Source: Pavlovales sp. CCMP2436
Lineage: Eukaryota; Haptophyta; Pavlovophyceae; Pavlovales
Assembly: GCA_026770615.1 (NCBI GenBank)
Contig: MU631369.1
Span: forward strand, 115,390-141,023
Length of the DNA stretch: 25,634 bases
Direction: 5' to 3'
The notes beneath the pieces are model-generated. The model had not been told where the DNA came from. It did not search any database and was given only the letters and a program-made list of their open reading frames with translations. This document shows, one piece after another, positions 2,215 to 25,165 of the stretch. Numbering within the stretch: position 1 is the first letter of the stretch; the number at the start of each line of letters is the position of its first letter. Both the position numbers and the translations under genes were made by a program.

Positions 2215-2228
2215 CCCAGCCCATTATA
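2215..2228. repeat. Left 14-bp target-site duplication of LINE copy A
   Basis: CCCAGCCCATTATA occurs here and again at 2676-2689, exactly bracketing the insertion 2229-2675. A third occurrence of the core (CCAGCCCATTATACCCCC) lies just left at 2200-2217, and its reverse complement is at 1038-1055. Confidence 0.75.
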
Positions 2229-2675
2229 TATATATATATATAGCGGCTCAGCATGGTTCAACAGGTGTTGTTCACTCACTGACTTGGTTGACGTCAAGAC
2301 GTTAGTCTTGGCAGCAGTAATGGTGGTGGTAGAGGTGAGGTTGGTGGTGAACTCGTAGCAATTGCCACAGGTTCCCCCCCTCCCTCCCGCCCCCCACACA
2401 CAACGCTCACGTCCATTTAGGTGCGTGTGCCCTGTCCGCCGTGGCCGCCGCGGCCACCGCGGCCGAGGCGTGCGCCCCGGTCGGCATTGTGGCTGCGCCA
2501 GTTGTCGTCACGGTACGCGCCGTACGCGTGCGCAGGGGCGTCCTCGGGCCCGTTTGCCGAGCGGCCGGTGCGCTGGAACCAAGGTGCACCCCGGGCACCA
2601 GCTGCTGCGCGCGTAGTCTGCGTGTGCAGCGAGCGCGCGCGGACAAGGATGAGCCTGGCGTGGCCGCGCGCCACG
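2229..2675 (-). mobile_element. 5'-truncated LINE, family Q copy A, with 14-bp TSD
   Basis: A 447-bp insertion in minus orientation between perfect 14-bp direct repeats. Read in element orientation it begins inside the ORF with VARGHARLILVRARSL, the terminal LINE module also present at 0.7 kb and 4.3 kb. It continues through APWFQRTGRSANGPED to a Gly/Arg-rich tail (RGGRGGHGG) and a TAA at about 2417. A roughly 180-bp 3' UTR follows, ending GAACCATGCTGAGCCGCTA and a (TA)n tail. 5' truncation, an AT tail and a long TSD are hallmarks of target-primed reverse transcription. Copies B (3.6 kb) and C (5.6 kb) are shorter members of the same family. Confidence 0.7.
2417..2675 (-). pseudogene. C-terminal end of LINE family Q ORF (RGG-rich)
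   Basis: About 86 codons of the LINE ORF end. The RGHARLILVRARS motif comes first, then a linker rich in Ala/Arg, then YRDDNWRSHNADRG and an RGG-type tail. Such tails often bind nucleic acid; that role is inferred. The start is lost to 5' truncation, so no initiation codon is expected. Confidence 0.5.
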
Positions 2676-2697
2676 CCCAGCCCATTATACCCCCCCA

Positions 2698-3173
2698 TAC
2701 TGTACGTCGATTCGGACTGGGCTGCAGACCTCGAGCGCCGCCGCTCGACAACTGGGTATGTCTTCTACTTCGCAGGTGTGTCTGTCAGCTGGCGCTCAAG
2801 CAAGCAAGCAATCACCACGCTCTCGTCGACAGAGACAGAGTATCTCGCTCTCGCAGACGCCGGCAAGGAGTCCATCTACTCCAAGGACATAGTGAAAGAT
2901 CTGGGCATCATCAACATCGAGGGCCCGCTTCCGTTCTTCGAAGATAACAAGGGCGCCATCGACTTGGCGCAGAATCCCAAGTTTCACTCGCGGACCAAGC
3001 ACATCGACATTCGGCACCACTTCATCCATGACTGCGTCGAGCATAAGGTTATCAACATCCTGAAGGTGGACACCAAAACCAACGTGGCCGATGGCTTCAC
3101 CAAGCCGCTCGGCGGCGCCCAGTTCTCGGACTTCGCGTCGCTCGTCACCGACCAGATTGCCCAGCCGTTCTAG
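2698..3173 (+). pseudogene. Ty1/copia RNase H domain and C-terminus (5'-truncated)
   Basis: The translation YVDSDWAADLERRRSTTGYV, SWRSSKQ, LSSTETEYLAL, EDNKGAIDLAQNP, RTKHIDIRHHFI and VADGFTKPL is the classic RNase H end of a Ty1/copia Pol polyprotein. The catalytic acidic residues can be seen (D in YVDSDW, E in STETEY, D in EDNKGA). The frame is open for about 158 codons and ends with TAG at 3171-3173. The same frame then stays open to a TGA inside the LTR. Upstream it is cut exactly at the right TSD of LINE copy A (2689), so integrase and reverse transcriptase are missing. Confidence 0.9.
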
Positions 3174-3250
3174 ACCTGTTCAAAGTCTACGTCATCACCT
3201 GATGCTCAACAAAATGCTTTTGTTATCAACAGCATCGCACTTACTGCTCA

Positions 3251-3528
3251 ATCGAGGGGGTGTGTCAAGGATATCTGACTCATCAGATAATCAGGACTCG
3301 ACTATCGCTGGTCACCGGACTTTCACTGGACCTGACTAAGTCGGTTCCCTGTTGGTTCCATTTGCAGGAGCGGAACCGACTTTATGGTTATTGTAATTAA
3401 AACAATACCATTGTCAGTTTCGTTGTCTTAAGTCATCTCCATCAATTTCTAGCCCTAGGCCCGCTCGCGCGCATCCCTAGACTCGCTCACGGCACCCTCG
3501 CGTCACCGCCGGGACCTGCACTAACAAC
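3251..3528 (+). repeat. Polypurine tract and 3' LTR of the copia element
   Basis: ATCGAGGGGG (3251-3260) is a polypurine tract about 80 bp after the RNase H stop, and TGTGTCAAGG starts directly after it, as expected for the 5' end of a 3' LTR. The LTR contains an AT-rich segment near 3385-3415. The right end is uncertain; a CA in the CACTAACA stretch near 3525 is one candidate. With the left LTR gone, neither its length nor the TSD can be verified. Confidence 0.55.
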
Positions 3529-3593
3529 CTTCCGTATGTTGTCGACCCCAGAGGCCCCTGAGAGGCACACAAGGTGGGCTGCAACCGTCGAGG

Positions 3594-3695
3594 AGGGCTC
3601 TATTATATTCATGAATATATATATATTAGCAGCTCAGCATGGTTCAACAGGTGTTGTTCAGTCACTGGCTTGGTCGACGCCAGGGCTCTATTATA
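3594..3695 (-). mobile_element. 5'-truncated LINE family Q copy B with 14-bp TSD
   Basis: AGGGCTCTATTATA at 3594-3607 is repeated perfectly at 3682-3695 and brackets a 74-bp insert. The insert is the family Q 3' end in minus orientation: an AT-rich tail, then the TTAGCAGCTCAGCATGG and GTTCAACAGGTGTTGTTCAG blocks. It matches copy A (about 2240-2297) and copy C (about 5581-5640) with few changes. Confidence 0.7.
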
Positions 3696-4060
3696 CACCA
3701 GCTAACGACTCTTAGCGCACAGGGGCACACGATGTCTACTTCTTCGTCCAGGCCACCACTTTTCCCCCTCCCCCGTGTGGAATAGCGCCACTAATTCGGA
3801 TTTTGACCCGCGGGAACGCGGCCGAGCGAAGCTAAGACGAGGACGGGTCGCAGCGGATAGACGACGCGGGGAGTAAGATAGCACATGGGACGGCCGATGC
3901 GCTGACCCTCCCTGGTCATGCCCGTGCGCCTTCGGGCTGCAAATTGGGGGACAAATTAAAAAAGAACTATTATTTAAAAAGTTACTCCGACCCCTCCCAT
4001 CGACGGCCGCACACTGGGGCCGGCTGAGGGGGTACACTGTGGGCTTTTCTATGTGACAAG
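3696..4060. other. Non-coding stretch without recognised content
   Basis: No convincing gene, repeat or RNA is visible. The open frames here lack coding character. Confidence 0.4.
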
Positions 4061-4550
4061 TTAGTTATATACATCTAGGGATTCAAGCTGTCGACTGATC
4101 CCAAGAAGTACTGCTGATCAGAGCGCTGCGACGTCCATTGCCTGCTGCAAGCCTTAGTAGGCTGCGCTGGCTTGGGCGCTAGTGCGCGTGCCGATGAAGC
4201 TCCGGTAGTGTGCCCGGGCAAGGGCGGATAAGGAGATGATCTGCTGGTTGTTGTGCATCGTGTACCCACGCTGGGCGGCGATCGGAGCCAGCGAACTCAG
4301 GCGCGCGAGCAGCAGCTGCGCGTGGCCGCGTGCTGCAATCGTGCCGATCGTGCCGATGAGCTACGCCCTGATGCGCACGATCGCCTGCTGCGGGTCCACA
4401 CCCATCACGTCGTGCATCTTGCGGCCACCCTGCGCCGCGATGTCGTTGACGAGCACGCGCGTGTCGACGCTGACCTCGCTGAAAGCGCCGAAGACTATTC
4501 TGCGTATCGGTTTGACGGTGTTGAGCTTGATATATATTAGTTATGTATAT
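4061..4550 (-). mobile_element. 5'-truncated LINE family P copy X1 with probable TSD
   Basis: TTAGTTAT followed by a similar AT hexamer (12 of 14 identical) occurs at 4061-4074 and 4537-4550 and brackets a minus-strand LINE fragment. The element carries the terminal ORF module, a stop and a 3' UTR ending with AGCTTGAATCCCTAGATG. The same 3' end recurs at 4.8, 20.9 and 25.0 kb, always with a different 5' truncation point. In element orientation the sequence after the tail is TATAACTAA. Confidence 0.65.
4154..4524 (-). pseudogene. LINE family P ORF2 C-terminus
   Basis: The minus-strand frame reads IVFGAFSEVSVDTRVLVNDI, then AAQGGRKMHDVMGVDPQQA, LIGTIGTIAARGHAQLLLAR, HNNQQIISLSALARAHYRS and ends AQASAAY with TAA (plus 4154-4156). 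The AAQGGRKM...MGV.P...A..RI....LI.TIGTIAA block is nearly identical to the + strand fragment at 25521-25634. One in-frame TAG (plus 4361-4363) stands where the 25.5-kb copy has Gln. The FG-F/W-S...RGHA pattern also matches copy 1 at 0.7 kb, so this is a shared C-terminal domain of the element family. Its function is unknown to me. Confidence 0.65.
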
Positions 4551-4655
4551 TAATGTAGGGGGGTTCGGGCTGGCGGTACGTTTCAAGTTCAAGTCAGGCT
4601 GATCTTAGCGCTCCGACGCAGGCTCCTACGCGCTACGCCGAAGTGGGGAGCTGGT
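4548..4655. repeat. Repeat Y copy 1
   Basis: A block that starts TATTAATGTAGGGGGGTTCG and ends near GGGGAGCTGG. It is nearly identical to 4674-4798 and 5034-5158. TGTATATT lies at both ends (4544-4551, 4658-4665). All three copies share the left end next to AT-rich DNA and differ at the right end, which fits 5'-truncated insertions in minus orientation. Confidence 0.6.
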
Positions 4656-4673
4656 TGTGTATATTTACACATA

Positions 4674-4798
4674 TATTAATGTAGGGGGGTTCGGGCGGGC
4701 GGTACGTTTCAAGTTCAAATCAGGCTGATCTTAGCGCTCCGACGCAGGCTCCTACGCGCTACGCCGAAGTGCGGAGCTGGTAGAAGTGGTGGATGATG
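4674..4798. repeat. Repeat Y copy 2, interrupted by LINE copy X2
   Basis: Same block as copy 1 with very few differences, extending further right through TAGAAGTGGTGGATGATG. It is interrupted at its right end by the LINE family P insertion at 4806-4974. Confidence 0.6.
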
Positions 4799-4989
4799 TA
4801 TATATTTATGATAGGGATTCAAGCCGGCGTCTGACTGTTCTGAATGTTGTGCTGGTCTGAGCGCTGCGTCGCCCATTGCCTGCTGCGTGCCTTAGTCGGC
4901 TGCGCTGGCTTGGGCGCCACCGCGCGTGCCGATGGATCTCCGGTAATGCGCAACCGCGCGTGCCGATGGACTCCGGATGATGTATATAT
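4791..4989 (-). mobile_element. 5'-truncated LINE family P copy X2 with 15-bp TSD
   Basis: GGATGATGTATATAT occurs at 4791-4805 and 4975-4989, a perfect 15-bp TSD bracketing 169 bp. The insert is the family P 3' end in minus orientation (AGCC-type 3' UTR end, then the GCGCGTGCCGATGGA segment). That segment is partly duplicated in tandem near the 5' end of the element. Because it sits inside repeat Y copy 2, it is younger than that copy. Confidence 0.7.
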
Positions 4990-5033
4990 ATAGCGGCCCA
5001 TGCTGAGCCGCTATATATATATATATATATATA
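4986..5033. repeat. AT palindrome built from family Q 3' ends
   Basis: TATATATAGCGGC and GCCGCTATATATA form 13-bp complementary arms around CCATGCTGA. The right arm with the loop is the reverse complement of the family Q end (GCGGCTCAGCATGG). A (TA)n run follows. Confidence 0.55.
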
Positions 5034-5158
5034 TATTAATGTAGGGGGGTTCGGGCTAGCGGTACGTTTCAAGTTCAAGTCAGGCTGATCTTAGCGCTCC
5101 GACGCAGGCTCCTATGCGCTACGCCGAAGTGGGGAGCTAGTAGAAGTGGTGGATGATG
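5034..5158. repeat. Repeat Y copy 3
   Basis: Same block as the copies at 4548 and 4674. This copy continues to the right without a visible break, into the coding-like stretch described next. Confidence 0.6.
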
Positions 5159-5250
5159 AGGAAGCCGAAAACAAAGCGCTGGAGTCGCTGCGCAACGCGA
5201 AGCCGCCCGACAGTGCGCATAGCGGCTCAGCAATATACACTGACACAATC
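5095..5250 (+). pseudogene. Possible exon fragment inside repeat Y
   Basis: After a plausible splice acceptor (TGATCTTAG, ending 5094) the plus frame reads RSDAGSYALRRSGELVEVVD, then DEEAENKALESLRNAKPPD. Its acidic and Lys/Leu-rich character looks coding, and the first part is conserved in frame in the other two Y copies. I do not recognise the protein. If repeat Y is instead a minus-strand retroelement tail, this frame is a chance reading. Confidence 0.25.
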
Positions 5251-5464
5251 GTTCTCGCCCAACCCCTACATATTACTCCCCGACGCAAAACGTTGGTTCC
5301 ATTGGGTGCACACTACGCTCTATGGGCAGCTTGCCCTCTGCGGGGGACGTGCGAAAACCATAACTATCACTATCTATTCGCTCGAATAATAACCAGCAAT
5401 CCCCACCATCTCTACTTAATAAATTACAATTAAAAAAAAACAGGCGTTGTGTGCACCCCCCACC

Positions 5465-5530
5465 CCCCTCCTGTCCGGCGTGACGTTCTGGTGGTAGTCC
5501 GCAAGAAGGCGTGACGCCGGGCAGGAGGGG
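5465..5530. repeat. Small inverted repeat (17-bp arms)
   Basis: CCCCTCCTGTCCGGCGT (5465-5481) pairs with ACGCCGGGCAGGAGGGG (5514-5530), 16 of 17 positions, around a 32-bp loop. A related GAAGGCGTGACGCC-GGCAG segment occurs near 7015-7040. The nature is unknown; it may be a tiny MITE or a hairpin. Confidence 0.45.
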
Positions 5531-5574
5531 ATGGCGGGGGTTGTAATCTGTACACTCATCTCATTGCCTGTTTA

Positions 5575-5640
5575 AAACATATTAGCGGCTCAGCATGGTT
5601 CAACAGGTGTTGTTCAGTCAATAGCTTGGTCGACGTCAAG
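5575..5640 (-). mobile_element. LINE family Q copy C (short)
   Basis: ATTAGCGGCTCAGCATGG, CAACAGGTGTTGTTCAGTCA and GCTTGGTCGACGTCAAG repeat the 3' end of copies A and B. No TSD could be found, and the 5' limit is unclear. Confidence 0.5.
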
Positions 5641-5689
5641 CTGAGGTCGAGCGATCGACCCAAACCCTCATGCACCAGCACTCACACCA

Positions 5690-6475
5690 ACGGGTGTGAG
5701 TGTGTGCGCCCCGGCCCCCACGCCCCGCCTCGGCCGCGCCTCGGCCGCCGCAGCCCTGCCGTGGCGGCCGCAGGGAGCAGCATCGTCTTCGTAGCCTTGG
5801 TAGCCTTGAGCGGCGTCTCCGTGTGCGGCCCGCCGCCGCGCGCAGCAGCGCTCACCGCAGCGCGCGACGTACATCCACTTGAGGACCCGAGCGAGACGGC
5901 AGGTCGAAAGGTGCCAGCGAGTACCTCGAGTGGACAGCATCGCGACGCTATGAGCGCGCACGCTGCGGCGGCCGCAGGGAGCAGCATCGTCGTCGTAGCC
6001 TTGGTAGCCTTGAGCGGCGTCTCTGCGTGCGGCACGCCGCCGCGCGCAGCAGCGCTCACCGCAAGCGCGCGACGCACATCCACTTGAGGACCCGAGCGAG
6101 ACGGCAGGTCGAAAGGTGCCAGCGAGTACCTCGAGTGGACAGCATCGCGACGCTACGAGCGCGCACGCTGCGGCGGCCGCAGGGAGCAGCATCGTCGTCG
6201 TAGCCTTGGTAGCCTCGAGTGGCGTCTCTGCGTGCGGCCCGCCGCCGCGCGCAGCAGCGCTCACCGCAAGCGCGCGACGCACATCCACTTGAGGACCCGA
6301 GCGAGACGGCAGGTCGAGAGGTGCCAGCGAGTACCTCGAGTGGACAGCATCGCGCCACTGCGAGCGCGCACACTGCGGTGGCCGCAGGAAGCAGCATCGT
6401 CGTCGTAGCTTTGGTAGCCTTGCGCGGCGTCTCCGTGTGCTGCTCGCCACCGCGCGAAACAGCGCCCGTCACAGC
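5690..6475. repeat. Tandem array, about 205-bp unit, 3.6 copies
   Basis: The anchor GGCGGCCGCAGGGAGCAGCA starts at 5763, 5967, 6172 and (diverged) 6377, giving a period of 204-205 bp. A unit carries the GTAGCCTTGGTAGCCTTGAG and ACTTGAGGACCCGAGCGAGA segments. Because 205 is not a multiple of three, a given reading frame rotates between units, so the long overlapping frames on both strands are probably by-products of GC-rich repetition. Confidence 0.7.
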
Positions 6476-6491
6476 ACGTGACAGAAGCGTT

Positions 6492-6581
6492 TGTAAATTT
6501 CTAGTTATACGTCCGCCCCCGAATGGTTCTGAAACCCGAACCAGAGCGTTGAAAAACACTCGGATCCGGGGAACTTTCCAG
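6492..6581. repeat. Dispersed repeat Z, copy 1
   Basis: Aligns with 7403-7492: shared blocks are TGTAAAT-x-TCTAG-x-TTA, GTCCG and a strongly conserved AGCGTTG plus AAAAACACTCGGATC core. It follows directly after the 205-bp array. Nature unknown. Confidence 0.45.
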
Positions 6582-6730
6582 TACACCGCAATAGCATGGT
6601 GGCGAAGAGCAACATCATTGTGGCGAGCCAGGCAGCGCCCCCCTCGGGGGGCGCAGTCGCAGCTGCACGCTCGCGCAGCACAGGGAGCAGCGGGGCTACG
6701 ATGGCGGTGGGCCGCTTCCATTCGTTCGCA

Positions 6731-6933
6731 TACTGAGAGGCCTACTGCGGACCCCTCATTTTGGTGGGGGATGAAGGATTTTTCTCTAAAAAGTTTTGAG
6801 ATTTTTTCTTCAATCTGTTAGTCACAACTGTGACCTCAAATCAAGCGGGACGGGATCGCCCGCGAAATACTTTTTGGGGTGAAAATCTTTCATCCCTCAC
6901 CAAAATGAGGGGTCCGCAGTAGGCCTCTCAGTA
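6731..6933. mobile_element. 199-bp MITE with about 40-bp terminal inverted repeats and TA TSD
   Basis: The ends (6733-6772 and 6892-6931) are inverted copies, starting CTGAGAGGCCTACTGCGGAC and continuing through CCCCTCATTTTGGTG with one or two mismatches. TA lies on both sides (6731-6732, 6932-6933). The interior is AT-rich with no ORF. TA duplication suggests mobilisation by a Tc1/mariner-type transposase; that assignment is inferred. Confidence 0.8.
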
Positions 6934-7164
6934 CGCGAAAAAATGGTGTGGGTTGCCTTTCAACCCCCTCCAACCCCCACCAACCCCCACCATCCTCGAA
7001 GGCGGTGGGCCGGAAGAAGGCGTGACGCCTGGCAGAAGGAGGAGGGAGGGCGGCACTCGCAAGCTGACCTCGAAGCCGAACTCCAGCATGATGAAGGTGA
7101 TCAGCCCGTATATACACGTCCTTGCGCAAAGCTGAACGGAAATGCAAATTTTCTCTGGACAATC

Positions 7165-7340
7165 ATGAAATCAGCCTTAGAGCACTCATGAAGACAGCCT
7201 GAGGAAAGTTATGGAGACAGTCTGAAGACAGACACAGGACGTTCAGGAGAAGACAGAATTAAGACAGTTTCAAGACATGGTTCAAGACAGAGTCAAGACA
7301 GAGTTCAAGACAGAGTCAAGACAGAGACAGGGCAGCGTAA
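7165..7340 (+). repeat. Degenerate GACAG / TCAAGACAGAG array
   Basis: The motif AAGACAG recurs more than ten times with variable spacing. The densest part is the near-perfect TCAAGACAGAG series at about 7279-7330. Not coding. Confidence 0.6.
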
Positions 7341-7402
7341 GGGCAGGCCCGGGGATCGGGAGAAGGACGGGGAGCTGTCGCGCGCCTCAAATGTGAGCTG
7401 TG

Positions 7403-7492
7403 TGTAAATATCTAGATTAATGTCCGTCACCTGACAGGTCTCCACAGGACCCAAGCGTTGTGAAAAACACTCGGATCAAGGGACCTTAGCAG
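7403..7492. repeat. Dispersed repeat Z, copy 2
   Basis: Partner of 6492-6581. It keeps the AGCGTTGTGAAAAACACTCG core and the TCTAG block, and contains an extra small inverted repeat (ACCTGACAGGT). Confidence 0.45.
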
Positions 7493-7556
7493 ATCACACG
7501 GATACCGTCCCCACCGCTAAGGTTGATCAGACACACGACAATCGACGACTCTCTGG

Positions 7557-7964
7557 ATGGCGCGCGCTGACCGGCCGCCGCTGCCTCTCGCTCGTCTCAA
7601 AATGCAGCTCGCCTGCGCACATGCCGCACCTGTAGCACATAATAAACAGACTAATAATCTCCGGCAGCCTGTATCTTACAGTGTGATGCTTGTCCACGAG
7701 GGGCAAGAATCACACGGTGGAGGCTCATTGTGGGTCCCGGTCTACTCCACCCTCTCAGGGGAGTGGGCCTCGGGCTCAATATGTTGGGGTGTGTTTTCGG
7801 GGCATTGTTCTTCCCTCTTGCGCTTGTGGCGCGCCTCTACCGGTGTGGCTTCGGGGCATTGTTCACCTCTCTTCTTGCGCTGTTGTCGCGCCTCTGCTGG
7901 CTACTGGGGTGTGTGGGTATGTGTCGCTGCGTTGGACCGCACGGATGAGCGCAGGACATTTTGA
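7557..7964 (+). other. 135-codon open frame of doubtful coding value
   Basis: An ATG-started frame exists, but it contains an internal direct repeat (TTCGGGGCATTGTTC at about 7797 and 7851) and overlapping frames are equally open. No domain is recognised. Probably not a gene. Confidence 0.15.
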
Positions 7965-8038
7965 GATGCTTTGCGGATGAGCGCTAACATACAGACGATG
8001 CCGTCTGGCAGAGCAGATTTTTTTTAAAAAATATATAT

Positions 8039-8178
8039 ATTCCGCTCGAGACCCGTCATCGTCGGTTCATAACGACGTCACTCTCGCGAGTGAATCCGCC
8101 GTGCCCACAGGTACCTCCAGCTGCGCTTGTGCGCTGAAGGCCCATCACTGACAAAAAATTATAATGTTGAGTTGCCGA
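8039..8178. repeat. Three-hairpin dispersed repeat, copy 1 (candidate structured RNA or element end)
   Basis: Matches 17603-17736. Hairpin 1: CGTCG-GTTCATAA-CGACG (about 8060-8077). Hairpin 2: CACTC-TCGC-GAGTG (about 8079-8092). Hairpin 3: CCTCCAGC/GCTGAAGG arms (about 8114-8140). The shared sequence ends CACTGACAAAAA and then TTGCCGA. The right end runs into the 3' end of a minus-strand coding fragment, so in minus orientation it could be the 3' UTR of an element. Confidence 0.55.
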
Positions 8179-8422
8179 AGGTGCAGGTTTGTTCGCCTAC
8201 TGTAATTTCACGCAACCGAATAATTTCGCGGTTCGCCTCTGCGAATAACTTATTCGGCGCTGCCTTGGAGCTGTACGCGTAGCCGCAGGCGTCGACTAAC
8301 CGCTGAATCACGCTAAAGTTCGCGGAGAAACTCCAACAGGCGCTCTTGCTGCAACAAGGCAGTGCAGACAGCAGTGCCGCCATGCAAAATGAGGGGTCCA
8401 CCGGCGGAGCGCGCCCCACCAA
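8159..8422 (-). pseudogene. Unidentified coding fragment (minus)
   Basis: The minus frame reads NFSVIQRLVDACGYAYSSKA, then NKLFAEANREIIRLREITVG, and ends FGNSTL with TAA. The piece just upstream in a neighbouring frame (LLQQERLLEFLREL) joins it naturally, suggesting a one-base frameshift near 8320. It is helix-rich and looks like a real protein end, but I do not recognise a family. Confidence 0.35.
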
Positions 8423-8446
8423 GGTGCGAGACCGGCCTCCGCACGC

Positions 8447-8752
8447 GTGGCAGGCGACGGCGCAACATCGCCGGCCACGGGCGATGAGGCTCCCGCCGAG
8501 GCTCCTCCGCTGGCCGCGGGCGGTGAGGCTCCCCCCTCAGCCGCCATCGTCGGAGCAGCAGCGGATGACGCACCTGGGTCGCCCACTCGCGCTGAGCGCC
8601 CTGCTCCGGAGCCTGCGCCGGGCGTCGCGATAGTCTGGCCCACGCTGCACGGGGTGAGCATGTGCGAGGCCGTACGGAAACCGCCGCTCATGGTGGCCTT
8701 CTACGCGCTCGTCGTCATCGACCAGGTCCTCATGACGGCATTTTCCAGGCAG

Positions 8753-8754
<2 letters not shown>
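8447..8754 (+). pseudogene. Ala/Pro-rich open frame with a hydrophobic end
   Basis: A frame without an ATG starts Ala/Pro/Glu-rich (repeats of EAP and APP) and ends CEAVRKPPLMVAFYALVVID, QVLMTAFSRQ, a possible membrane helix, before running into the (TG)n tract. It may be part of an exon; low-complexity GC-rich composition makes chance possible. Confidence 0.2.

Positions 8755-8788
<34 letters not shown>
8754..8788 (+). repeat. (TG)n microsatellite
   Basis: About sixteen TG units in a row. Confidence 0.95.
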
Positions 8789-8789
<1 letters not shown>

Positions 8790-8977
8790 TTATGTAGATG
8801 GTCTAGAATTGTGACCAAGTTCCCCTAGGCTAAGCACTGTGCTGTAAGCCGGATATACAGAATTGCACTAATCAAAAAGAGCCACATTTACTCCATACCT
8901 TTAGTTAGTTACATTAAAGAGCAAATACTGAACGGGCAAGCTTCCGGCTTGTGCGCGCGCTTCGCCCACGATGACAT

Positions 8978-9424
8978 TCAGCCTGTCACGAAGATGGCCT
9001 CGACATTTTTTTCCTGAACGAAGGCGAAGAGCTGATCGCGAAGCACCGGATTCGGAAAATCCGGCTCCTGCGCGGCCGCGAGCGCAACCCACAACGCGCT
9101 CGCCCGATTGGTGGCCAGGTCGGGCCTGCGCGGCGCAGCGGCGACGTGCGGCTTGCCACCGCCAAAGCCATCAACGCCGGCCGCCACGGATCACGGACCC
9201 AGTGCTGCCAACTGACAGCGCTCGATCCGCCAAATTCGGACTTGTCTAATGAAAACCGATGTATGGCACGCTGCTACAGCGCGTCGTCCAGCCTGCTCGC
9301 GGGACTTGGGGATCGCATTCAAGTGCATCAAACGGGGGTCTTGCATCTCTTCCATATCATTCACTGATAGGCGTCGCATCGTAGGCTGCGTCGTCATGCG
9401 GCTACCAGTCTCGAGCACACACAC
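8978..9424 (-). pseudogene. Unidentified degraded coding fragments (minus)
   Basis: Two minus-strand pieces look coding. One, upstream, contains TMRRLSVNDMEEMQDPRLMH (about 9424-9300). The other contains ALWVALAAAQEPDFPNP, then RDQLFAFVQEKNVEAIFVTG, ending in TGA at 8978. They are in different frames with no clear intron between them. No family is recognised. Confidence 0.25.
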
Positions 9425-18123: not shown

Positions 18124-18290
18124 ATGGCCGATGCGTATGGGCGCGCCTTCACCGCGGTCGTGAGCGACGTCGAGGAGAGCGACGCTGGCCTGCTCCGCCA
18201 GGGGCACGCTGCCGGCTTAGCCGCGGCCCGTGCGATCGCCAAGCTGCGTTCGGCTGGGGGAGGCTCGTCATCTGCGGCTGGCTCTATTAT
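18124..18290 (+). pseudogene. Possible MULE-internal exon, uncertain
   Basis: MADAYGRAFTAVVSDVEESD, then AGLLRQGHAAGLAAARAIAK, is open and preceded by a plausible acceptor (GCGCCAG). It reads like protein but does not match a known MULE segment. It ends in a GGCTCTATTATA motif and AT repeats. Confidence 0.25.
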
Positions 18291-18299
18291 AGTAAATGG

Positions 18300-18423
18300 T
18301 AATTATATTCATAGTATTATTATTATTATTATTATTGCTGCGCTCGCACACGCAGCAGGCAGAGCTGCGGGCAGAGGAATAATCATCATAATCATCATAA
18401 TCATCATAATCATAATCATAGTA

Positions 18424-18456
<33 letters not shown>

Positions 18457-18515
18457 ATGATGATGATGATGATGATATTGATAATAATAATAATAATGAT
18501 AATGATGATAATACA
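18300..18515 (+). repeat. (ATT)n, (ATC)n and (ATA)n microsatellites
   Basis: Runs of ATT, ATCATA, AAT and GAT triplets with one short GC-rich break (about 18336-18378). Ile/Met-rich translations are artefacts. Confidence 0.9.
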
Positions 18516-18554
18516 GGAATCGACAGGCTCAGAGCAGCACCAGCGTGCAGCAGA

Positions 18555-18638
18555 CTACGGCCTCGGCCCAGAACGTGGCAGCGGGTGGCTGGTCACCTCG
18601 CTGAAGCGCTGCTCATGCCAGGGACGCAAGCACTCGGG
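18555..18638 (+). pseudogene. MULE transposase, first half of the SWIM zinc finger
   Basis: YGLGPERGSGWLVTSLKRCS then CQGRKHSG, ending at a GTGAGC donor (18639). The C-S-C pair is the first half of a SWIM finger (CxCx(n)CxH). The left limit of the exon is uncertain. Confidence 0.5.
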
Positions 18639-18654
18639 GTGAGCGATAAATGCT

Positions 18655-18840
18655 GCCTCAGTGTCCGTCCGCTGCCCCAGTGTCCACTGCCCCAGTGTCC
18701 GCTGCCCCCAGTGTCCGTCCGCTGCCCCAGTGTCGTCCACTACCCCAGTGTCCGCTGGCCCCCGTGTCCGCTGCCCCTAGTGTCCGTCCACTGCCCCAGT
18801 GCCCGCTGCTTCAGTGCCCGCTGACCCACTGTCCGCTGAG
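18655..18840 (+). repeat. Tandem GCTGCCCCAGTGTCC array in the SWIM intron
   Basis: About 12 degenerate units of 15-19 bp. It lies in the intron that splits the SWIM finger. Confidence 0.8.
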
Positions 18841-18935
18841 ACGGACGGCAGACACTTTTCCTGACCCCCCCCTCCCACCCCCACCCCACCAACGCCGCAG
18901 CCGTCGCCGCCGCCGCCCCGCGTTCTCCTACGCAG

Positions 18936-19567
18936 CATACCATGCAGGGACAGCCTCGCGGTCGGCCAGGCCCTCTACTCCCAGGGCAAACCCCTCGAAA
19001 CCCTCGTCAAAGAGGAGCTATTTGCCTGGCTCTGGCTGACCTCGTCCTTTGATGCGGGCCGGCTTCACCAAGCTCGCTCGCGCCTCTTCGCGCACGTCCG
19101 CCCTGCGGTGCCTAGTACCTCTGCCGCAGCGCCTGCCTCGACGCTGACGCTGACCGAGCGCGTGCAGATGCTCGTCAACGAGACTGGACACCTCGCGCTG
19201 CTCGCCGCCAAGGTATTCTTAGCATTAGCATTCACATTCGTATTATTATTATTATTATTATTATTAGGTTCCCGCGCTCATGGCGGAGATGCGGCATGCT
19301 ATCTCCGTTCTCTACCGCAAGGCGGCTGGCCTTCCGGAGTTGGAGACGCTGCAGTTTGTCACCGTATCGGGGAGCGCGCGCGCGACCGCCGCTGCTGCCA
19401 GTTGGGCAGCCTCTTTCGCCGCGGGACAGGCGGGAGCGCAGCCAACGAGTGCGCTGCCGCCGCTCAGCGCGCACGGGGCTGGCCGCAAGCGAGGCAGCCG
19501 CATTCAAAACGAGGGGGAGGCGCCGAAGAAGGCGCGCGGGCGCGGCGGCGGGTCGCGGGTGACCTGA
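18936..19567 (+). pseudogene. MULE transposase, second half of SWIM and C-terminus
   Basis: IPCRDSLAVGQALYSQGKPL supplies the second half of the SWIM finger; the final His of C-x-H is Asp here, which would harm zinc binding. Then follow VKEELFAWLWLTSSFDAGRL and LTERVQMLVNETGHLALLAA, a 55-bp intron (19213-19267, GTATTC...TTATTAG, filled with ATT repeats), and an exon starting VPALMAEMRHAISVLYRKAA that ends in a basic tail (KKARGRGGGSRVT) with TGA at 19565-19567. A one-base phase mismatch with the preceding exon suggests an indel. Confidence 0.6.
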
Positions 19568-19611
19568 AGACAAATTTGCCATCGAGCGACTCGTGCGGTC
19601 TAAAGAGTGTA

Positions 19612-19661
19612 TTCTCCGACTGTCGGAGAATCAATTACCCGGCTATTTTAGCCCATTTTAA
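19612..19661 (-). repeat. MULE right terminal inverted repeat
   Basis: TTCTCCGACTGTCGGAGAA then TCAATTACCCGGCTATTTTA, the inverse of the left end. The candidate TSD (GGCGAATTA, 19662-19670) follows. Confidence 0.75.
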
Positions 19662-19684
19662 GGCGAATTATTAGACTGCGAGCG

Positions 19685-20519
19685 ATGGGATACGGCGGGA
19701 ATCCGCGCGATGGTGCAGGACGACACAAGAGCACTCCTAAGCCCGCGCCCGACGGCCCGCACGTGAACCCCCTTCTGGGCTGGCTCAAGCGCATGCGCGA
19801 CACTGACGATGGTGGGGAGTCCAGCGACGATGAGGGCGAGCTGGCAGCGAGGGAGCGCGCGACAGCGCGCTCAACGAGGGCGCGGCTGGCAGCGAGGGAG
19901 CGCGCGACAGCGCGTTCAACGAGGGCACGGCTGGCAGCGTGGGAGCGCGCGACAGCGCGCTCAACGAGGGCGCGGCTGGCAGCATGGGCAAGCGCGCGGC
20001 CGGCAGCTCCGAACCGAGCGCAGCTGCTGGCGAGCAGAGTGTGCTGGACATGATCGCACCGCACCTGCCCGCCGAGCTCGTGAACCAGCTCAGATCGCAG
20101 CTTTTGACAGAAGCGGTGCTGCAGCAGCACCTCGGTCCGGCGATCGCCAAATCGCAGGCTACACACCTGAGGAATGCGATCGAGGAGGCTGGAGCGGTGC
20201 AGCGCCGACTCTTTGCGCAGCAGGTGAAGCAGCTCGAGCAACAGGCACAGGAGCTCCACGCCCGCCACGTCAAGACGTTGGATAAGGTGGTGCGCACGAT
20301 CCGCGAGGCGAAGACGCTGGCCTCTGAAAAGCCCTGGCTCGCGATGCTATGTTCGGGCAAGTACATCTGCACAGACTGCACCTCGCTCTTCCACCTCGTT
20401 AAGTCAAAGGGGCAGTGGCGGAGCTCAATGCCCTGGCTCCACTGGAATCAAGATCGAATGGGCGCTACGCCGCGCGCGCGAACGGTCGGCCGTAGGCCGA
20501 CCGCACAAAAATCAAGTAT
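19685..20519 (+). pseudogene. Coiled-coil protein with CxxC motif, one frameshift
   Basis: An ATG frame starts MGYGGNPRDGAGRHKSTPKP, runs through KRMRDTDDGGESSDDEGE, and then enters a 45-bp tandem repeat. A shift at the repeat start moves the sensible frame to one reading AGSEGARDSALNEGA three times. It continues with VLDMIAPHLPAELVNQLRSQ, a Gln/Leu-rich probable coiled coil (RRLFAQQVKQLEQQAQELHA) and WLAMLCSGKYICTDCTSLFH, where C-x2-C may be half of a zinc site. It ends with TGA just before or inside the twin palindromes, so the natural C-terminus may be lost. The family is not recognised. It abuts the MULE right end. Confidence 0.4.
19840..19974 (+). repeat. 45-bp tandem repeat, three copies
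   Basis: Unit CTGGCAGCGAGGGAGCGCGC followed by GACAGCGCGCTCAACGAGGG and CGCGG. It encodes a 15-residue unit in phase. Confidence 0.85.
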
Positions 20520-20569
20520 ATGAACTACGTAGTACGTGCGCTACGCGCGGTCGGCCTACGGCCGACCGC
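20483..20569. repeat. Pair of strong palindromes
   Basis: CGGTCGGCC-GTA-GGCCGACCG (20483-20503) and GCGGTCGGCC-TAC-GGCCGACCGC (20547-20569) have nearly the same stem with complementary loops. Each is followed by a CAAAA-x-ATCAAGTA segment and preceded by GCGCTACGC, so the whole unit is duplicated. Confidence 0.8.
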
Positions 20570-20890
20570 CAAAAGAATCAAGTAATCAAGTTTTTCATAG
20601 CGACCACTTTTGCCCTATAGAGCAAGTCGATTCCATCCTTGGTTATAAGCATGGCGCGCGGGCCACACACTCTTGGAGGAGACCTCCGGGATAGCTTTAA
20701 TAGATCCATACATGTGCATATGGGGGCTCTGCTCACTCTTGCAGGTGGTTCTGTAAATTAAAGTACTAATTTTATTTTAATATAATAGTAGTTAATAAAA
20801 AGAATATATAAATATTATTAGGGGAGGGAGGAGGGGGGTCTATGGCATCTGCTGCTACGAGTACGACTTCCGCTTCGCCCTCACTGCGCT
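20570..20890. other. Non-coding, with an AT-rich and a G-rich patch
   Basis: No gene seen. AT-rich at about 20755-20818, then a G-rich run (GGGGAGGGAGGAGGGGGG, about 20820-20838). Confidence 0.4.
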
Positions 20891-20996
20891 TTAGTTATAT
20901 TACTGATTGGGATTTAAGCTGGCGTCTAACTGTTCTGAATGCTGTGCTGGTCTGAGCGCTGCGTCGCCCATTGCCTGCTGCGTGCCTTAGTTATAT
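20891..20996 (-). mobile_element. 5'-truncated LINE family P copy X3 with 10-bp TSD
   Basis: TTAGTTATAT at 20891-20900 and 20987-20996 brackets 86 bp of the family P 3' UTR in minus orientation. In element orientation the flank is TATAACTAA, the same as for copy X1. Confidence 0.7.
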
Positions 20997-21089
20997 AAGT
21001 CTGAGGTTTGAAATCCCAATGAATAAATGATTAGTCGCGCGTCTGCCGAGACTCGGAATAATATATGGCCAAATGATATATATGTGTAG

Positions 21090-21117
21090 ACCGCCAGCTT
21101 GAATTCCTATCAGAAAT
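21090..21117 (+). repeat. LINE family P 3' tip in plus orientation
   Basis: GACCGCCAGCTTGAATTCCT then ATCAGAAATA matches the terminal 28 bp of family P, inverted relative to copies X1-X4. Confidence 0.5.
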
Positions 21118-21287
21118 ACAGACTGACCGCTGGCATAAGTGAGATCGGACGCCAAGAGCGAGAAACTCGGGCTTTCCGAGAGTGCTGTCAGATTCAGAAT
21201 AATCAAAAAGTGCCTTAAAGCTTGCAGCGCAGATTCGACAATGAAATGGGGCCGGCGCCCCACATTCACGCATTTCACTATTCAGTC

Positions 21288-21461
21288 TACAGGGGGTCAC
21301 GGGTTATAAGAAGGGCGAATTTTGAGCTTGAGGCTGAGCTGCTTAGCTGCAAATTACATACAAACAAGGCTTAAATTTGCTTAAATTACATACAAACAAT
21401 GCAAAAAAACGAGGCTCGGCTTCTTAACACTACGGCTTCTTATTGCCCGCGACACCCTGTA
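21288..21461. mobile_element. 170-bp mariner-type MITE with TA TSD
   Basis: Inverted ends CAGGGGGTCACGGGTTATAA (from 21290) and, read inward from the right, CAGGGTGTCGCGGGCAATAA (from 21459), then GAAG in both. TA lies on each side (21288-21289, 21460-21461). CAGGGTGTC-like termini and TA duplications are typical of mariner-type elements. The interior has a direct repeat, AAATTACATACAAACAA (about 21350 and 21383). Confidence 0.75.
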
Positions 21462-21481
21462 GTTAAGTATCCTCCAAGTGC

Positions 21482-22880
21482 AATCAGATCACCGGCACCT
21501 CTCAGAAACTCAACTCTCTGCTTGGTCTGAAGCACAAACAGGCGCTGTGGGCGATCACAGTCAACTCGACGGCGCACAAGGGTGGCTACTGGGTTCAGCA
21601 CTGCTCCCCGACGAGAACATCGACTTCTGCCTCGGCGTGGACAACGCCATCCTCAAGCAGGCGTCTGTGGCGCTTGGCTGCGACCCGACCACCGACTGGC
21701 TGGCGCACAAGCGCCTCTACCTACCGACGCACCTGGCCGGCCTCGGCTTACCCTCGCTCTCCGAGACGCGCTCGGCCGCCTTCGTCGCGTCGGCGGCACC
21801 CGCAGCGACCTCCTTCCTCGATCAGCACGACGCGACGGGCACAGTGACGGTGCACGGCGTCCTCGAGCGGCCGTCAATCGCGGAGCGAATCGGGCGTAAC
21901 TCCTTCGCCGCACCCGGGTCGCAGGGCTGGCGGAAGTTCGGCGACTCCGGCTCACGCCTCGGCGCGGCAATCATCGCGACCGGCACCGCCCTGCGCGCTC
22001 GCGTGCCACCCGGGTACACGGGCGAGCTCCGCGTGCTACGTGTGCCCCCAGAGGAGATGGACCTGCGCGGCAAGGGGCTGCACGGTGCCGGCCTACAGGT
22101 GGCCATCACGTCGGACCTTCAGCAGATTGAGCACGAGACGCTGACTGAGCAGCTCGCGCACCGGCCGCGTGGAGACCGCCAGATGCAGCTATTCCGCAAC
22201 ATCTCGCGCGAGAGCATGATCGTCTTCACGATGCTCCCTGCCGGTCTCGCCAAGTTGCCCAACGACGAGTGGACCGAGATATCCGCACGCGCCCTCGGCC
22301 TCCCGAGCCCCGCGTGCGCTCACCTCGTCGGGTGCCCACTCCCCCAGGTCTCCGGCCGCAGCACCACACACGTCAACCCCTACGACGACACGCTCGCTGC
22401 AGCCACCAATTTCCAGGGCGGCCACTTCGCCAAGCTCCAGCACGACCCCGTCGTCAGGGCGGTCGCGCGCTTCGCGACCGTGTATGGTTGAACCCAAGCC
22501 CAGGCGGAGAACTCAGAGATTCTCGGCTCCGTTCTGCGGCAGAACCCCGGTACGATGCGGACCGAGGAGGCGCTTCTCCGCGCGCGCGCGGCTACAGTCG
22601 ACGCCTATGTGGAGCTCGACCAGCCTGATGGACAGGCCGCCGTTGGTCACATCGTCGAGATGAAGACGGTCCACTACGGCCTGACGCACTACAACGCGGT
22701 CGCGCCGACGCGTGGCCACGCGGTAGAGAACGGCTCGGGCAAGCTCGACGCTGAGCGCATGAGGCAGCTCCAGCAGACCGACTGCGAGGTTTTCGGCACG
22801 CGAGAGGGCCAGGTGGGACTGATGGAGCAGCGCCTCAACGGTTTCCCCCCCGTCATCGGCATAGCGACCGGCGGCTTCGT
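21482..22880 (+). pseudogene. LINE-like ORF2: RT C-terminal region plus PD-(D/E)xK-like nuclease (copy 2)
   Basis: The start reads KLNSLLGLKHKQALWAITVN and KGGYWVQHC in one frame (21482-21606), then shifts near 21606-21615 into DENIDFCLGVDNAILKQASV, LPTHLAGLGLPSLSETRSAA, the thumb-like region behind many LINE reverse transcriptases. Next comes a block homologous to copy 1 (EWTEISARALGLPSPACAHL), a TGA at 22489-22491, and in the same frame TVDAYVELDQPDGQ, GHIVEMKTVHYG. The D and E-x-K spacing fits a restriction-like endonuclease core, which would nick the target. The fragment stops at VIGIATGGF, where copy 1 continues GEWSDD, because the pyrimidine tract begins. No RT catalytic motif is left. 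Confidence 0.65.
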
Positions 22881-23050
22881 TTTTCCTTTCCTTATCTTTC
22901 CTTTCCTTTCCTTTCCCTTCCTTTTTTTCTTTCTTTTCTTTCTTTTCTTCCTTTCCTTTTCTTTCCTTTGCTTTCCTTTCTTTTCTTTTCCTTTTCTTTC
23001 CTTTCCTTTCCTTTCCTTTCCTTTCCTTTTCTTTTTTTTTCTTTCTTTTT
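22880..23050 (+). repeat. Polypyrimidine tract (TTTCC/TTTCTT)n
   Basis: About 170 bases of almost pure C/T on this strand, with single A and G interruptions. It ends the LINE copy 2 frame. Long mirror-like pyrimidine tracts can form triplex DNA. Confidence 0.95.
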
Positions 23051-23111
23051 CAAAGGGCGTTCCCTGTCTATAAGTAAAAATGATACATATCACTAACTAC
23101 ACGCTCACGCT

Positions 23112-23207
23112 TCATGATAACTAGCAATGCTGAACTCCATCAAATCCCCCCATCCCCCCACCCCCACCAAAAGCTCTTCGCTGGCTTGGACGTCGGCTCT
23201 AGCGTTA
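23112..23207 (+). repeat. Partial duplication of a host intron-exon junction
   Basis: CATGATAACT-x-GC-x-ATG through the C-rich run to AGCTCTTCGCTGGCTTGGAC matches 23240-23330, which includes the acceptor and start of the exon at 23296. The copy breaks off after about 30 bases of exon. Confidence 0.6.
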
Positions 23208-23295
23208 AAAAAGGATACCTATTACTACACTTTTGCGTTCCATGATAACTTGCGATGTTGAACCCATTCAACCCCCCTCCCCCCATCCCAAAAAG

Positions 23296-24960
23296 CTCTT
23301 CGCTAGCTTGGACGTCGATTCGAGCGGGCTGCCCCACTACCAGCCAGTACACAGGGAGGCGGGGGTGCTGGGGTGGGTGGAGTGCGTCACGACTGGGTGG
23401 ATGGCGGCCGGCAACCACTTGGTGCGTTCATTTTTATTATAATAAAATAGTAACAGCTCGGCCTATTATACCAGTTATAATGGCGGCCAGCAACCACTGG
23501 GTGCGTACATATTTGTACTTCTACTTGTTTCTACCTGTTTGTATCTGTAGAAATACATTTTTATTTTATTTTAATGTATTCTAAGGTGCTCGCTATTCTA
23601 CTAATAAAATAGTAAGAATCATGATCATGATAGTAACCATCGTAATCATAGCAACCATAATAACTAACTAACAGGTGCTCACTGCGCATGTGCTGCGTGC
23701 CGTCAGCGCCCCGGGCACAACCTTGGCCTCTGCCCCGATCATTGTTCCGACCTCTGCCCCGGCCTCTGCTCCGACGCTTGGCGAGGCGGCGATGACGGTG
23801 GGGCTGCTGCAGGAGCAGGAGCAGCCGCAGCAGCAGCCTTCTACTTCGGGCGCGCTGTCGCTGCCGTCGCCGCTGCCACTGCTGTACTACGGGGGCGAGT
23901 ACCGCACACTGCGCGCGAGAGATGAGGCGCCCCAGACCGCCGCCGCCGCTGCAGCCGCCGCTGCTGCTGCTGCTGCTGCTACTGCTGCTAACGCTCCTAC
24001 TGCTGCCGCTGCTGCCGCCGCCGAGGGAATTCCTCTGGGGGAGGGAACGAGGGAGAGAACCCCGCTGTCAGGAGAGGGGAGGGAGGGAACCCCCTTGCCC
24101 CCCGCCGCACACGCACACCTCGCGGCGGCCCACATGCACAGCAGCAGCGGCAACCTGCCCAGCGTGGGCATGCACGACATGCCTGCCGCTCAGTCCGCGA
24201 CCCAGTACGCGACGGGAGAGGCGCCGCGGACGGGGGGTACGCCACGGGACAGGCGTGTGTTGCGACAGTACTCGCCGAGGGAGGGCTGCGGCTCAACAAA
24301 TTCCTCCGCAAATTTGTTCGCCTCGTTCTCCGCAGGCGGAAGCGGGCACAGCCTCCACGGCAACAGCCCTAGCCTCCACAACCCCAGCCACAACAACAAC
24401 TTCTACAACCCCAGCACAACAACCCCATCCACAACCCCCACAGCAGCCCCAGCCCGGCCTTCAAGCCAAGGTTCGCCCCCTCCAGCGGCGAGCCTGCCTC
24501 GCTCTCCGCCCCCCTCTCCGTCGCCTTCCCCTCCCCTTACTCCGCCGTGCGCGGCGGAGGTGCGGCCGGCGCGCCGTTCCCACCAAATTCGCAGTTCCCG
24601 CCAAATTCGCACCGGCCGCCGCTGGGCAGGACGGCGGGGGGAAGCACCGGTCTGTACGCCGACTCCGCGTAGCAGCTGCAGCAGTTCGCGCGCTCACTCG
24701 GGCCGGGCGGCGCGGCGGCCCTGCGCGCGGGCGGGTCGCGCTCCGTGTCACTCTCGGTCGTGTCGCTCGGAGCGGGCGTGGTGCCGGTGCGGCACGGCCC
24801 CGAGCAGCTGCTCGCGCACTCCATGCCGCACGGGGGCTACAGCGGCGGCTACCCGCCTGCGGCCTACGCGCACACCGGGGGAATGCACGCGGGCGCGGCG
24901 CTGCTCGGCAGCTCCCAGGGCGCCTACCGCACGCAATTTCGCGCGCGCGTGATCGCAGAC
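23296..24960 (+). pseudogene. Host-like two-exon gene with low-complexity C-terminus (one frameshift, one TAG)
   Basis: Exon 23296-23421 (42 codons) reads LFASLDVDSSGLPHYQPVHR, EAGVLGWVECVTTGWMAAGN, HL and ends at a GTGCGT donor. The next exon starts 23675 after TAACTAACAG in matching phase: VLTAHVLRAVSAPG. Then come Pro/Ala/Thr, Gln-rich and poly-Ala (about 23935-24020) stretches and Asn/His/Pro-rich segments. Near 24415 a one-base deletion moves the sensible frame (FYNP then QHNNPIHNPHSSPSPAFKPR). TAG at 24670-24672 sits in a Gln run (YADSA-stop-QLQQF). After it the frame is good to RVIADC, where LINE copy X4 lies just downstream. It could be a regulator, since such composition is common in eukaryotic transcription factors, but no DNA-binding domain is seen. 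The 5' part is missing. Confidence 0.4.
23480..23517 (+). repeat. Duplicate of the exon 3' end and donor
   Basis: ATGGCGGCCAGCAACCACTG then GGTGCGTACATATTTG repeats 23401-23437, which spans the exon end and 5' splice site. Confidence 0.6.
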
Positions 24961-24989
24961 TGTGCCCTGTTAGTTACTAAGTTAACTTC

Positions 24990-25165
24990 TATTATATTTA
25001 TGATAGGGATTTAAGCTGGCGTCTGACTGTTCTGAATGTTGTGCTGGTCTAAGCGCTGCGTCGCCCATTGCCTGCTGTGTGCCTTAGTCGGTTGCTGTGG
25101 CTTGGGCGCCACCGCGCGTGCCGATGGATCTCCGGTAGTGTGCCCGGGCAAGGGCGTATATTATA
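24990..25165 (-). mobile_element. 5'-truncated LINE family P copy X4
   Basis: Minus-strand 3' end: the last about 25 codons (ALARAHYRRSIGTRGGAQAT), TAA (plus 25084-25086), the 3' UTR and the tip AGCTTAAATCCCTATCATAA. TATTATA at 24990-24996 and 25159-25165 may be a short TSD. In element orientation the flank is TATAATAGAAG. Confidence 0.6.

What the first reader, a model, noticed from the sequence alone, without database searches (positions are those of the whole stretch)
2215..25165. LINE 3' ends insert next to TATAAT/TATAAC: a shared target signature
Five short insertions have TSDs I can read: copy A (14 bp, perfect), copy B (14 bp, perfect), X2 (15 bp, perfect), X3 (10 bp, perfect) and X1 (12 of 14). 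In element orientation the base string at the tail junction is TATAATGGG (A), TATAATAGA (B), TATAACTAA (X1 and X3) and TATATACAT (X2). X4 shows TATAATAGA, and the tail of LINE copy 1 at 1035 abuts TATAATGGG. Because in A and B the TSD itself contains the motif, it belongs to the target. A LINE choosing TATA-like sites would be an unusual, possibly promoter-seeking, specificity. The elements also carry AT-rich or (TA)n tails, so part of the signal could be composition.
Basis: partly seen in the sequence, partly recalled or inferred. Interest (0 to 1): 0.75.

Follow-up and report, generated by a model that had tools for sequence, protein, structure and literature searches.

The report
LINE tails and target sites: ATATA
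Jumping elements (LINEs) in this algal genome do favour short TA-rich landing sites, but the promoter-like TATAAT/TATAAC motif that was noticed is not the rule: one family mainly ends in its own TA repeat, and two others favour ATATA-like sites, which LINE tails themselves create anew.

Summary
The genome is that of Pavlovales sp. CCMP2436, a haptophyte, or a close relative. The target-site duplications (TSDs) of copies A, B, X1, X2 and X3 are real. Copy 1 does not abut TATAATGGG: 10 A and 8 G lie between, and the string belongs to the inverted end of a DNA element. X4 has no convincing TSD.

I collected 96 P, 106 Q and 22 R (a third family) 3' ends and examined the 20 bp before each 5' end, which is pure target (77, 87 and 20 usable). 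With the window's own copies and tail-selected copies left out, TATAAY is not clearly above AT-matched DNA (P 1/32, Q 4/33, R 2/17). TATA is, for Q (20/33 against 8.9) and R (9/17 against 3.9), not for P (5/32 against 5.3). P's junction TATA is mostly its own (TA)n tail.

Best reading: target-primed reverse transcription at sites that pair with the RNA's TA-rich end, as in L1 and microsatellite-targeting LINEs. New copies often lie next to older copies' tails. Promoter seeking is unsupported, though not directly testable here.

The parts
2229..2675 (-). copy A: 5'-truncated 3' end of LINE family P, (TA)n tail at the left
   Evidence: 93.6% identical to the 3' part of the longer P copy in L106; TSD positions
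2215..2228 (.). TSD copy of A at the tail side; second copy 2676-2689; lies in the end repeat of a DNA element
   Evidence: paralogous empty site in L020 spans the junction
3608..3681 (-). copy B: 74-bp 3' end of family P between TSDs 3594-3607 and 3682-3695
   Evidence: 14 held paralog matches of the target read TCGA (12) or TCAA (2) where B's TSDs read TATA
4075..4536 (-). X1: family Q copy, TSD 12 of 14 (4061-4074 / 4537-4550)
4806..4974 (-). X2: family Q copy, 15-bp TSD (4791-4805 / 4975-4989); the target runs on as TATATATAGCGGC, the complement of a P tail (by eye), next to a tiny P fragment (4998-5013)
20901..20986 (-). X3: family Q copy, 10-bp TSD (20891-20900 / 20987-20996)
25001..25160 (-). 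X4: family Q copy without a convincing TSD
1..1024 (+). LINE copy 1 (called family K here): 3' part; same family as the 917-codon open frame in L127
1036..2704 (.). DNA element with inverted end repeats (GGGGGTATAATGGGCTGG; outer end TACAGTATGGGGGG), interrupted by copy A; source of the TATAATGGG string
   Evidence: inverted repeat 1038-1060/2195-2217, 96%; 23 genome copies of the motif; outer end by eye (letters)
21565..22893 (+). LINE copy 2: longer piece of the family P ORF (TGA at 22489-22491) with a C-terminal E-x-K motif
   Evidence: 94.5% to L106 3779-5114, next to the copy A type 3' end there (5260-5709)

Best explanation
P, Q and R are 3' ends of LINE families (P and Q encode related proteins; R was not assigned to a protein) that insert by target-primed reverse transcription and leave 5'-truncated copies with TSDs of roughly 8-16 bp. 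Shown: Q and R insert preferentially where the target zone holds (A)TATA; in the Q copies with a clear TSD the motif usually opens the TSD. P ends in its own (TA)n tail, and its targets show only a short ATA/TAT preference. Inferred: the nicked target strand ends in ...TATAT-3' and pairs with the TA-rich RNA 3' end (Q RNA probably ends CAUAAAUAUA), so tail and target look alike at the junction; endonuclease preference may add to this and may explain why Q and R are choosier than P. Because each insertion leaves a new TA tract, older tails become landing sites, giving tail-to-tail and same-strand nests. TATAAT/TATAAC is what such sites look like in a small sample.
For: ATATA in the 20 bp before the 5' end: Q 45/87, R 10/20, P 15/77; other 20-bp bins upstream 4-16% for Q, 0-17% for R, 1-8% for P. 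AT-matched draws: Q mean 15.0, 0 of 5000 reach it; R 1 of 5000; P 52 of 5000. Copies not selected on tail: Q 14/36 against 12/180 flank windows, p 2.7e-6; R 10/20 against 8/108; P 3/35 against 14/196, p 0.73. Targets without another LINE tip: Q 21/52 against 20/241, p 8e-8. Position: 33 of 89 Q copies have an ATATA start 12 to 5 bp before the 5' end, against 2 to 7 in the 8-bp bins further up. In 19 Q copies with a TSD score of at least 9 the TSD starts ATATA in 8, TATA in 3, other ATA in 2. The 3' junction holds ATATA in P 85/96 and Q 89/106 while the 5' zone holds it less often, so the tail supplies part. Nesting: 22 neighbour tip pairs within about 130 bp among 185 listed tips against 0.66 at random; within 45 bp 5 convergent, 3 same-strand, 0 divergent. 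Empty sites: copy A and P_L001 have the motif in a paralog; B, P_L032 and Q_L018 carry ATA/TATA in both TSDs where paralogs lack it.
Against: P has long (TA)n tails but the weakest target bias, which simple tail pairing would not predict. Only 42 of 91 Q copies are ATATA-positive at both the 3' junction and the 5' zone; 37 have it at the 3' junction alone, so it is a preference, not a requirement. Q copies fetched with a query ending in the tail score higher (31/51) than the others (14/36), and in the others the positional peak is blunt (7 of 37 copies at -12 to -5, 5 of 37 at -36 to -29). Dinucleotide content alone gives ATATA in 29.6 of 87 Q zones. Outside older LINE tips, R targets gave 0/6. 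The RNA 3' end was not observed, and no biochemistry exists.
Confidence: 0.6

Rival explanations
1. The specificity lies in the encoded endonuclease, a C-terminal PD-(D/E)xK-like domain that recognises TA steps; tail pairing is incidental and differs between families because their endonucleases differ.
For: K, P, Q and homologs share a C-terminal region with 17 invariant columns, among them H, D, E and K (8 sequences); E/D-x-K is present in all 7 rows of alignment A1 that cover it. Q and R differ from P in target choice although all have TA-rich tails. The EhLINE1 endonuclease nicks at a 5-base consensus (PMC3118788, passages).
Against: No structure could be obtained. No match to Pfam endonucleases and none to PDB chains but one chance-level hit of E 1.1. 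The one Q copy read has K in place of the acidic residue.
Confidence: 0.25
2. No target choice at all: the elements end in TA-rich tails and land in AT-rich DNA, so TATA at the junction is composition plus tail.
For: True for TATA in family P (5/32 against 5.3 AT-matched); the 5' zone is more AT-rich than the flank in all three families; dinucleotide shuffles of the Q zones give 29.6 of the 45.
Against: Q and R exceed AT-matched draws; Q exceeds every dinucleotide shuffle (45 against a maximum of 35 in 60); A5/T5 runs are rarer than in AT-matched DNA in Q (3 against 11.3).
Confidence: 0.1
3. Promoter seeking: the LINEs select TATA boxes of genes.
For: The likeness of TATAAT/TATAAC to a TATA box; TATAA is enriched in Q and R targets. 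LINEs that target RNA polymerase III genes are known (TRE5-A, PMC5391098, seen only in the listing).
Against: TATAAY is not clearly enriched; the base after the ATATA run is not restricted; many targets lie beside older LINE tips or in a DNA element end.
Confidence: 0.04

Closest known systems
Mammalian L1 priming at T-tracts (PMC3649969, abstract read)
   Same: Target strand 3' end pairs with the RNA tail; a few matched bases suffice; 5' truncation (recalled).
   Different: Poly(A) and TTTT/A there, TA-rich tail and ATATA here; no N-terminal AP-type endonuclease found by Pfam in the five homologs scanned here.
Microsatellite-targeting LINEs with restriction-like endonuclease: Dong on (TAA)n (PMC7998251, passage), Togen on (TG)n and some HERO families (PMC4640811, passages)
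   Same: LINE target preference for a short simple repeat, possibly with a C-terminal restriction-like endonuclease.
   Different: Here a preference for ATATA-like sites, not an absolute microsatellite target; clade not placed.
EhLINE1 of Entamoeba (PMC3118788, passages)
   Same: Protist LINE with a loose short nick consensus; its endonuclease has CCHC and PD(X)10-14D motifs.
   Different: Consensus GTATT and T-enriched sites there; homology not tested.

Membership tests
LINE (non-LTR retrotransposon) | 5'-truncated copies with a common 3' end and TSDs | tested here: met
   Variable truncation points; TSD score of at least 9 in P 20/79, Q 22/90, R 4/19 against 4.3%, 8.0%, 10.5% in mismatched pairs; for R alone the difference is small
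LINE (non-LTR retrotransposon) | reverse transcriptase domain in the encoded protein | tested here: inconclusive
   RVT_1 only below its cut-off: P0011 E 0.0046, P0013 E 7.7e-4; none for P0006, P0007, P0009 or the L127 ORF. RT-like motifs by eye in L127 (motif recalled)
Restriction-like-endonuclease LINEs (R2/R4/NeSL/HERO/CRE/Utopia) | C-terminal CCHC and PD-(D/E)xK endonuclease | tested here: inconclusive
   Conserved HD and E/D-x-K in the C-terminal region; CCHC not clear; structure prediction not available
Restriction-like-endonuclease LINEs (R2/R4/NeSL/HERO/CRE/Utopia) | no N-terminal AP-type endonuclease (feature recalled) | tested here: inconclusive
   No such Pfam hit up to E 1 in P0006 (1148 aa), P0011 (1124 aa), P0013 (1480 aa); weak evidence, since the RT itself is barely found there
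Microsatellite-specific LINEs (Dong, Togen) | all or nearly all copies in one microsatellite (recalled) | tested here: not met
   Q zones: ATATA in 45/87; the 19 listed Q sites show short TA runs or none, not long arrays
Promoter-targeting element | insertions at a fixed distance from transcription starts | not testable with these tools

The most novel reading that the evidence does not exclude
Families Q and R are haptophyte LINEs (Q related to elements that may carry a C-terminal restriction-like endonuclease) whose target choice is set by pairing between the RNA's AUAUA end and a nicked ATATA site. They and P pick rare TA-bearing copies out of repeat families that lack the motif, and because each insertion deposits a new TA tract they build their own landing pads, shared between LINE families.
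Probability: 0.35. Interest if true: 0.55.

Novelty: new member of a known kind. Interest (0 to 1): 0.4.

Why it matters
It separates tail from target in a case where the two look the same, and shows that two of three high-copy LINE families in an algal genome (508 to 2094 exact 3' tips each) have a measurable short-motif target preference. It also suggests how LINE tails can seed further insertions, which would help to explain nested LINE clusters, and warns against reading promoter meaning into TATA-like junctions.

Tried and rejected
TATAAY as consensus: rejected and the dinucleotide shuffles, against the less strict comparisons that favour it. Copy 1 as a further case: rejected, although one other K tip (L023) is followed directly by TATAATTTG. 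P as carrier of the signature: the first P loci were fetched with a query that held the TA tail and gave 12/42; copies not so selected gave 3/35, so the P signal was largely a selection effect. Q loci were fetched with a query ending in CATAAATATA and are also biased (31/51 against 14/36); both figures are given. Automatic TSD finding gave some false matches; I dropped seven rows by name before the logo (Q_L075_-2102, Q_L119_-456, Q_L061_+1462, P_L077_+2202, P_L036_-1553, P_L045_+1619, P_L034_+1490) and set the TSD of copy A by eye; several of the dropped rows also began with TATA or TAAATA. Pfam and PDB searches for the endonuclease led nowhere. The C309 copy (L106) proved 5'-truncated and had no RT part. 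A genome search for RVT_1 gave 151 matches, none of which I tied to P or Q.
Full report
What was checked. The window is G000:C63:115390-141023 of a 119.35-Mb genome in 703 contigs. A LINE protein of the window is 92% identical over 67% of its length to one from Pavlovales sp. CCMP2436, so this is that haptophyte or a close relative. Of its genome paper (PMC9756366) I saw twelve passages; the terms retrotransposon and reverse transcriptase have no hit in its main text.

Two items fall away. The tip of LINE copy 1 ends at 1024 and is followed by 10 A and 8 G before TATAATGGG. That string is part of the inverted end repeats of a DNA element: TATAATGGGCTGG occurs 23 times in the genome, in five places as + and - copies about 1.15-1.8 kb apart, and 1038-1060 pairs with 2195-2217 at 96%. 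Of six other K-type tips held, two (L014, L010) lie at such ends too, one (L023) is followed directly by TATAATTTG, three by other DNA. X4 has only a 7-bp match.

What the elements are. The tip strings are abundant: P 1409, Q 2094, R 508 exact copies. BLAST of the upstream DNA of copies against each other shows shared 3' ends and variable 5' truncation. In L106 the window's LINE copy 2 (94.5%) and copy A (93.6%) match neighbouring parts of one element, so P is a LINE with a coding region. Copy 1's family has an open frame of 917 codons in L127. The Q reading frame in L066 aligns with both. R was not tied to a protein. Pfam's RT matches only weakly, in two homologs (P0011 E 0.0046, P0013 E 7.7e-4), and not at all in the L127 ORF, P0006, P0007 and P0009. 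The C-terminal region has 17 invariant columns in 8 sequences, H, D, E and K among them, and E/D-x-K in the 7 rows of A1 that cover it: a hint of a restriction-like endonuclease. The one Q copy read has K in place of the acidic residue.

The test. The 3' junction cannot separate tail from target. The 5' copy of the TSD can: it lies before the element's 5' end, found here from where homology to other copies stops, without using the tail. Of 96 P, 106 Q and 22 R tips, 87, 95 and 21 gave a truncation point and 77, 87 and 20 a usable 20-bp zone. ATATA is present in Q 45/87, R 10/20, P 15/77, against 4-16%, 0-17% and 1-8% in the bins further up. AT-matched flank DNA gives Q 15.0, R 3.3, P 8.2, with 0, 1 and 52 of 5000 draws reaching the observed number. 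Dinucleotide shuffles of the Q zones give 29.6 on average and at most 35 in 60, so much but not all lies in dinucleotide content. By copy, 33 of 89 Q copies have an ATATA start 12 to 5 bp before the 5' end, against 2 to 7 in the bins further up and 13 at -4 to +3. A5/T5 runs are fewer than in AT-matched DNA (3 against 11.3), so it is not mere AT-richness. Among Q copies with a TSD score of at least 9 and not dropped, 8 of 19 TSDs start ATATA, 3 TATA, 2 other ATA, and 3 have TATAAY near the start; for P 1, 3 and 3 of 16, and 2 with TATAAY, namely copies A and B.

Bias and its effect. P loci and Q loci were fetched with queries containing tail bases. Copies not so selected give Q 14/36 against 12/180 flank windows (p 2.7e-6), R 10/20 against 8/108, P 3/35 against 14/196 (p 0.73). 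In these Q copies the positional peak is blunt: 7 of 37 at -12 to -5, but also 5 of 37 at -36 to -29. With the window's own copies, which raised the hypothesis, also left out: TATA Q 20/33 (AT-matched 8.9, 0 of 5000 draws), R 9/17 (3.9, 23), P 5/32 (5.3, 3279); ATATA Q 12/33 (6.3, 51), R 8/17 (2.8, 9), P 3/32 (3.6, 3595); TATAA Q 8/33 (2.8, 16), R 4/17 (1.1, 85), P 2/32 (1.4, 2192); TATAAY Q 4/33 (1.6, 319), R 2/17 (0.65, 633), P 1/32 (0.74, 2710). P shows a 3-base preference only (ATA or TAT 23/32 against 15.1, 5 of 5000). The base after the ATATA(TA)n run in 45 Q zones is A 12, G 12, C 8, T 2, with 11 runs ending in T, so nothing singles out TATAAY. For the other side: without AT matching and with the window copies in, TATAAY differs from flank windows in all three families, and all 87 Q copies give 12 against 3.7 AT-matched.

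Empty sites. Eleven of 46 insertions with a TSD score of at least 9 and usable flanks have a held, gap-poor paralog of the joined site; about six of them lie in other LINE copies, and P_L034 has a TSD starting GATTT, without a TA start. Copy A was compared apart: L020 spans the junction and holds TATAATGGGCTGG. P_L001: the paralog has ATAT. Copy B: 14 paralog matches have TCGA (12) or TCAA (2) where both of B's TSDs have TATA; a genome search found 40 places that match across the joined site, of which eight were read, all TCGA. P_L032: ATAAT against TTAAT or TTCAA-like paralogs. Q_L018: AGATATTAG against AGACATT, AGACATC or AGAGATC, and one different alignment. In these three the occupied copy carries the TA-ward bases in both TSDs. 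The plain reading is that the insertion picked a copy that already had them; later conversion between the two TSDs is not excluded.

Self-seeding. Another P, Q or R tip lies within 40 bp before or 75 bp after the insertion in P 22/78, Q 35/90, R 12/18, against 34/262, 35/290 and 13/60 windows of 115 bp further upstream; this counts nearness, not proof that the tail was the target. Among 185 tips listed for contigs C1-C8, 22 neighbour pairs lie within about 130 bp (random placement mean 0.66, maximum 4 in 500 runs): 6 convergent, 15 same-strand, 1 divergent; within 45 bp 5, 3 and 0. The tool lists only the first 100 places per family; the P and R lists were cut at C8 to match the Q list. Same-strand pairs could also come from local duplication; convergent ones less easily. 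A genome-wide count was asked for but not answered.

Mechanism. I hold target-primed reverse transcription with pairing between a nicked ...TATAT-3' strand and a TA-rich RNA end as most likely for Q and R (inferred). In L1 priming, as few as 4 matching bases at the primer 3' end suffice (PMC3649969, abstract). P's long tails with weak target bias show that tail pairing alone does not fix the choice; endonuclease preference is the main rival. Known LINEs use TAA (PMC7998251, passage) or TG repeats (PMC4640811, passages). A search for papers holding non-LTR retrotransposon, TA repeats and insertion gave none, and the listings show no title on TA-preferring LINEs; that is no proof that none is in print.

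Verdict. The TSD observation is largely right, the motif reading mostly wrong. A weaker but real target preference exists in two of the three families.

Noticed in passing
L127:1344-4094: Open 917-codon reading frame of the window's LINE copy 1 family; no Pfam family matches it up to E 1.
   Followed up: partly
window 1036-2704: DNA element with doubled TATAATGGGCTGG end repeats and outer end TACAGTATGGGGGG, apparently inserted in a copia-like RNase H frame (2705-3173; type named by eye, no Pfam hit).
   Followed up: partly
window 3500-3800: Target of copy B is a repeat with 799 first-look candidates in the genome; Q_L018 sits in the same repeat family.
   Followed up: partly
window 6718-6946: Two 65-base arms, 92% complementary, 99 bases apart: a hairpin-like element.
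   Followed up: no
window 5655-6473: Four copies of about 205 bp in tandem, one only 60% alike; no match to the P copy in L106.
   Followed up: partly
P0013: A 1480-aa homolog of these LINE proteins with a weak RING-finger match ahead of the RT.
   Followed up: no
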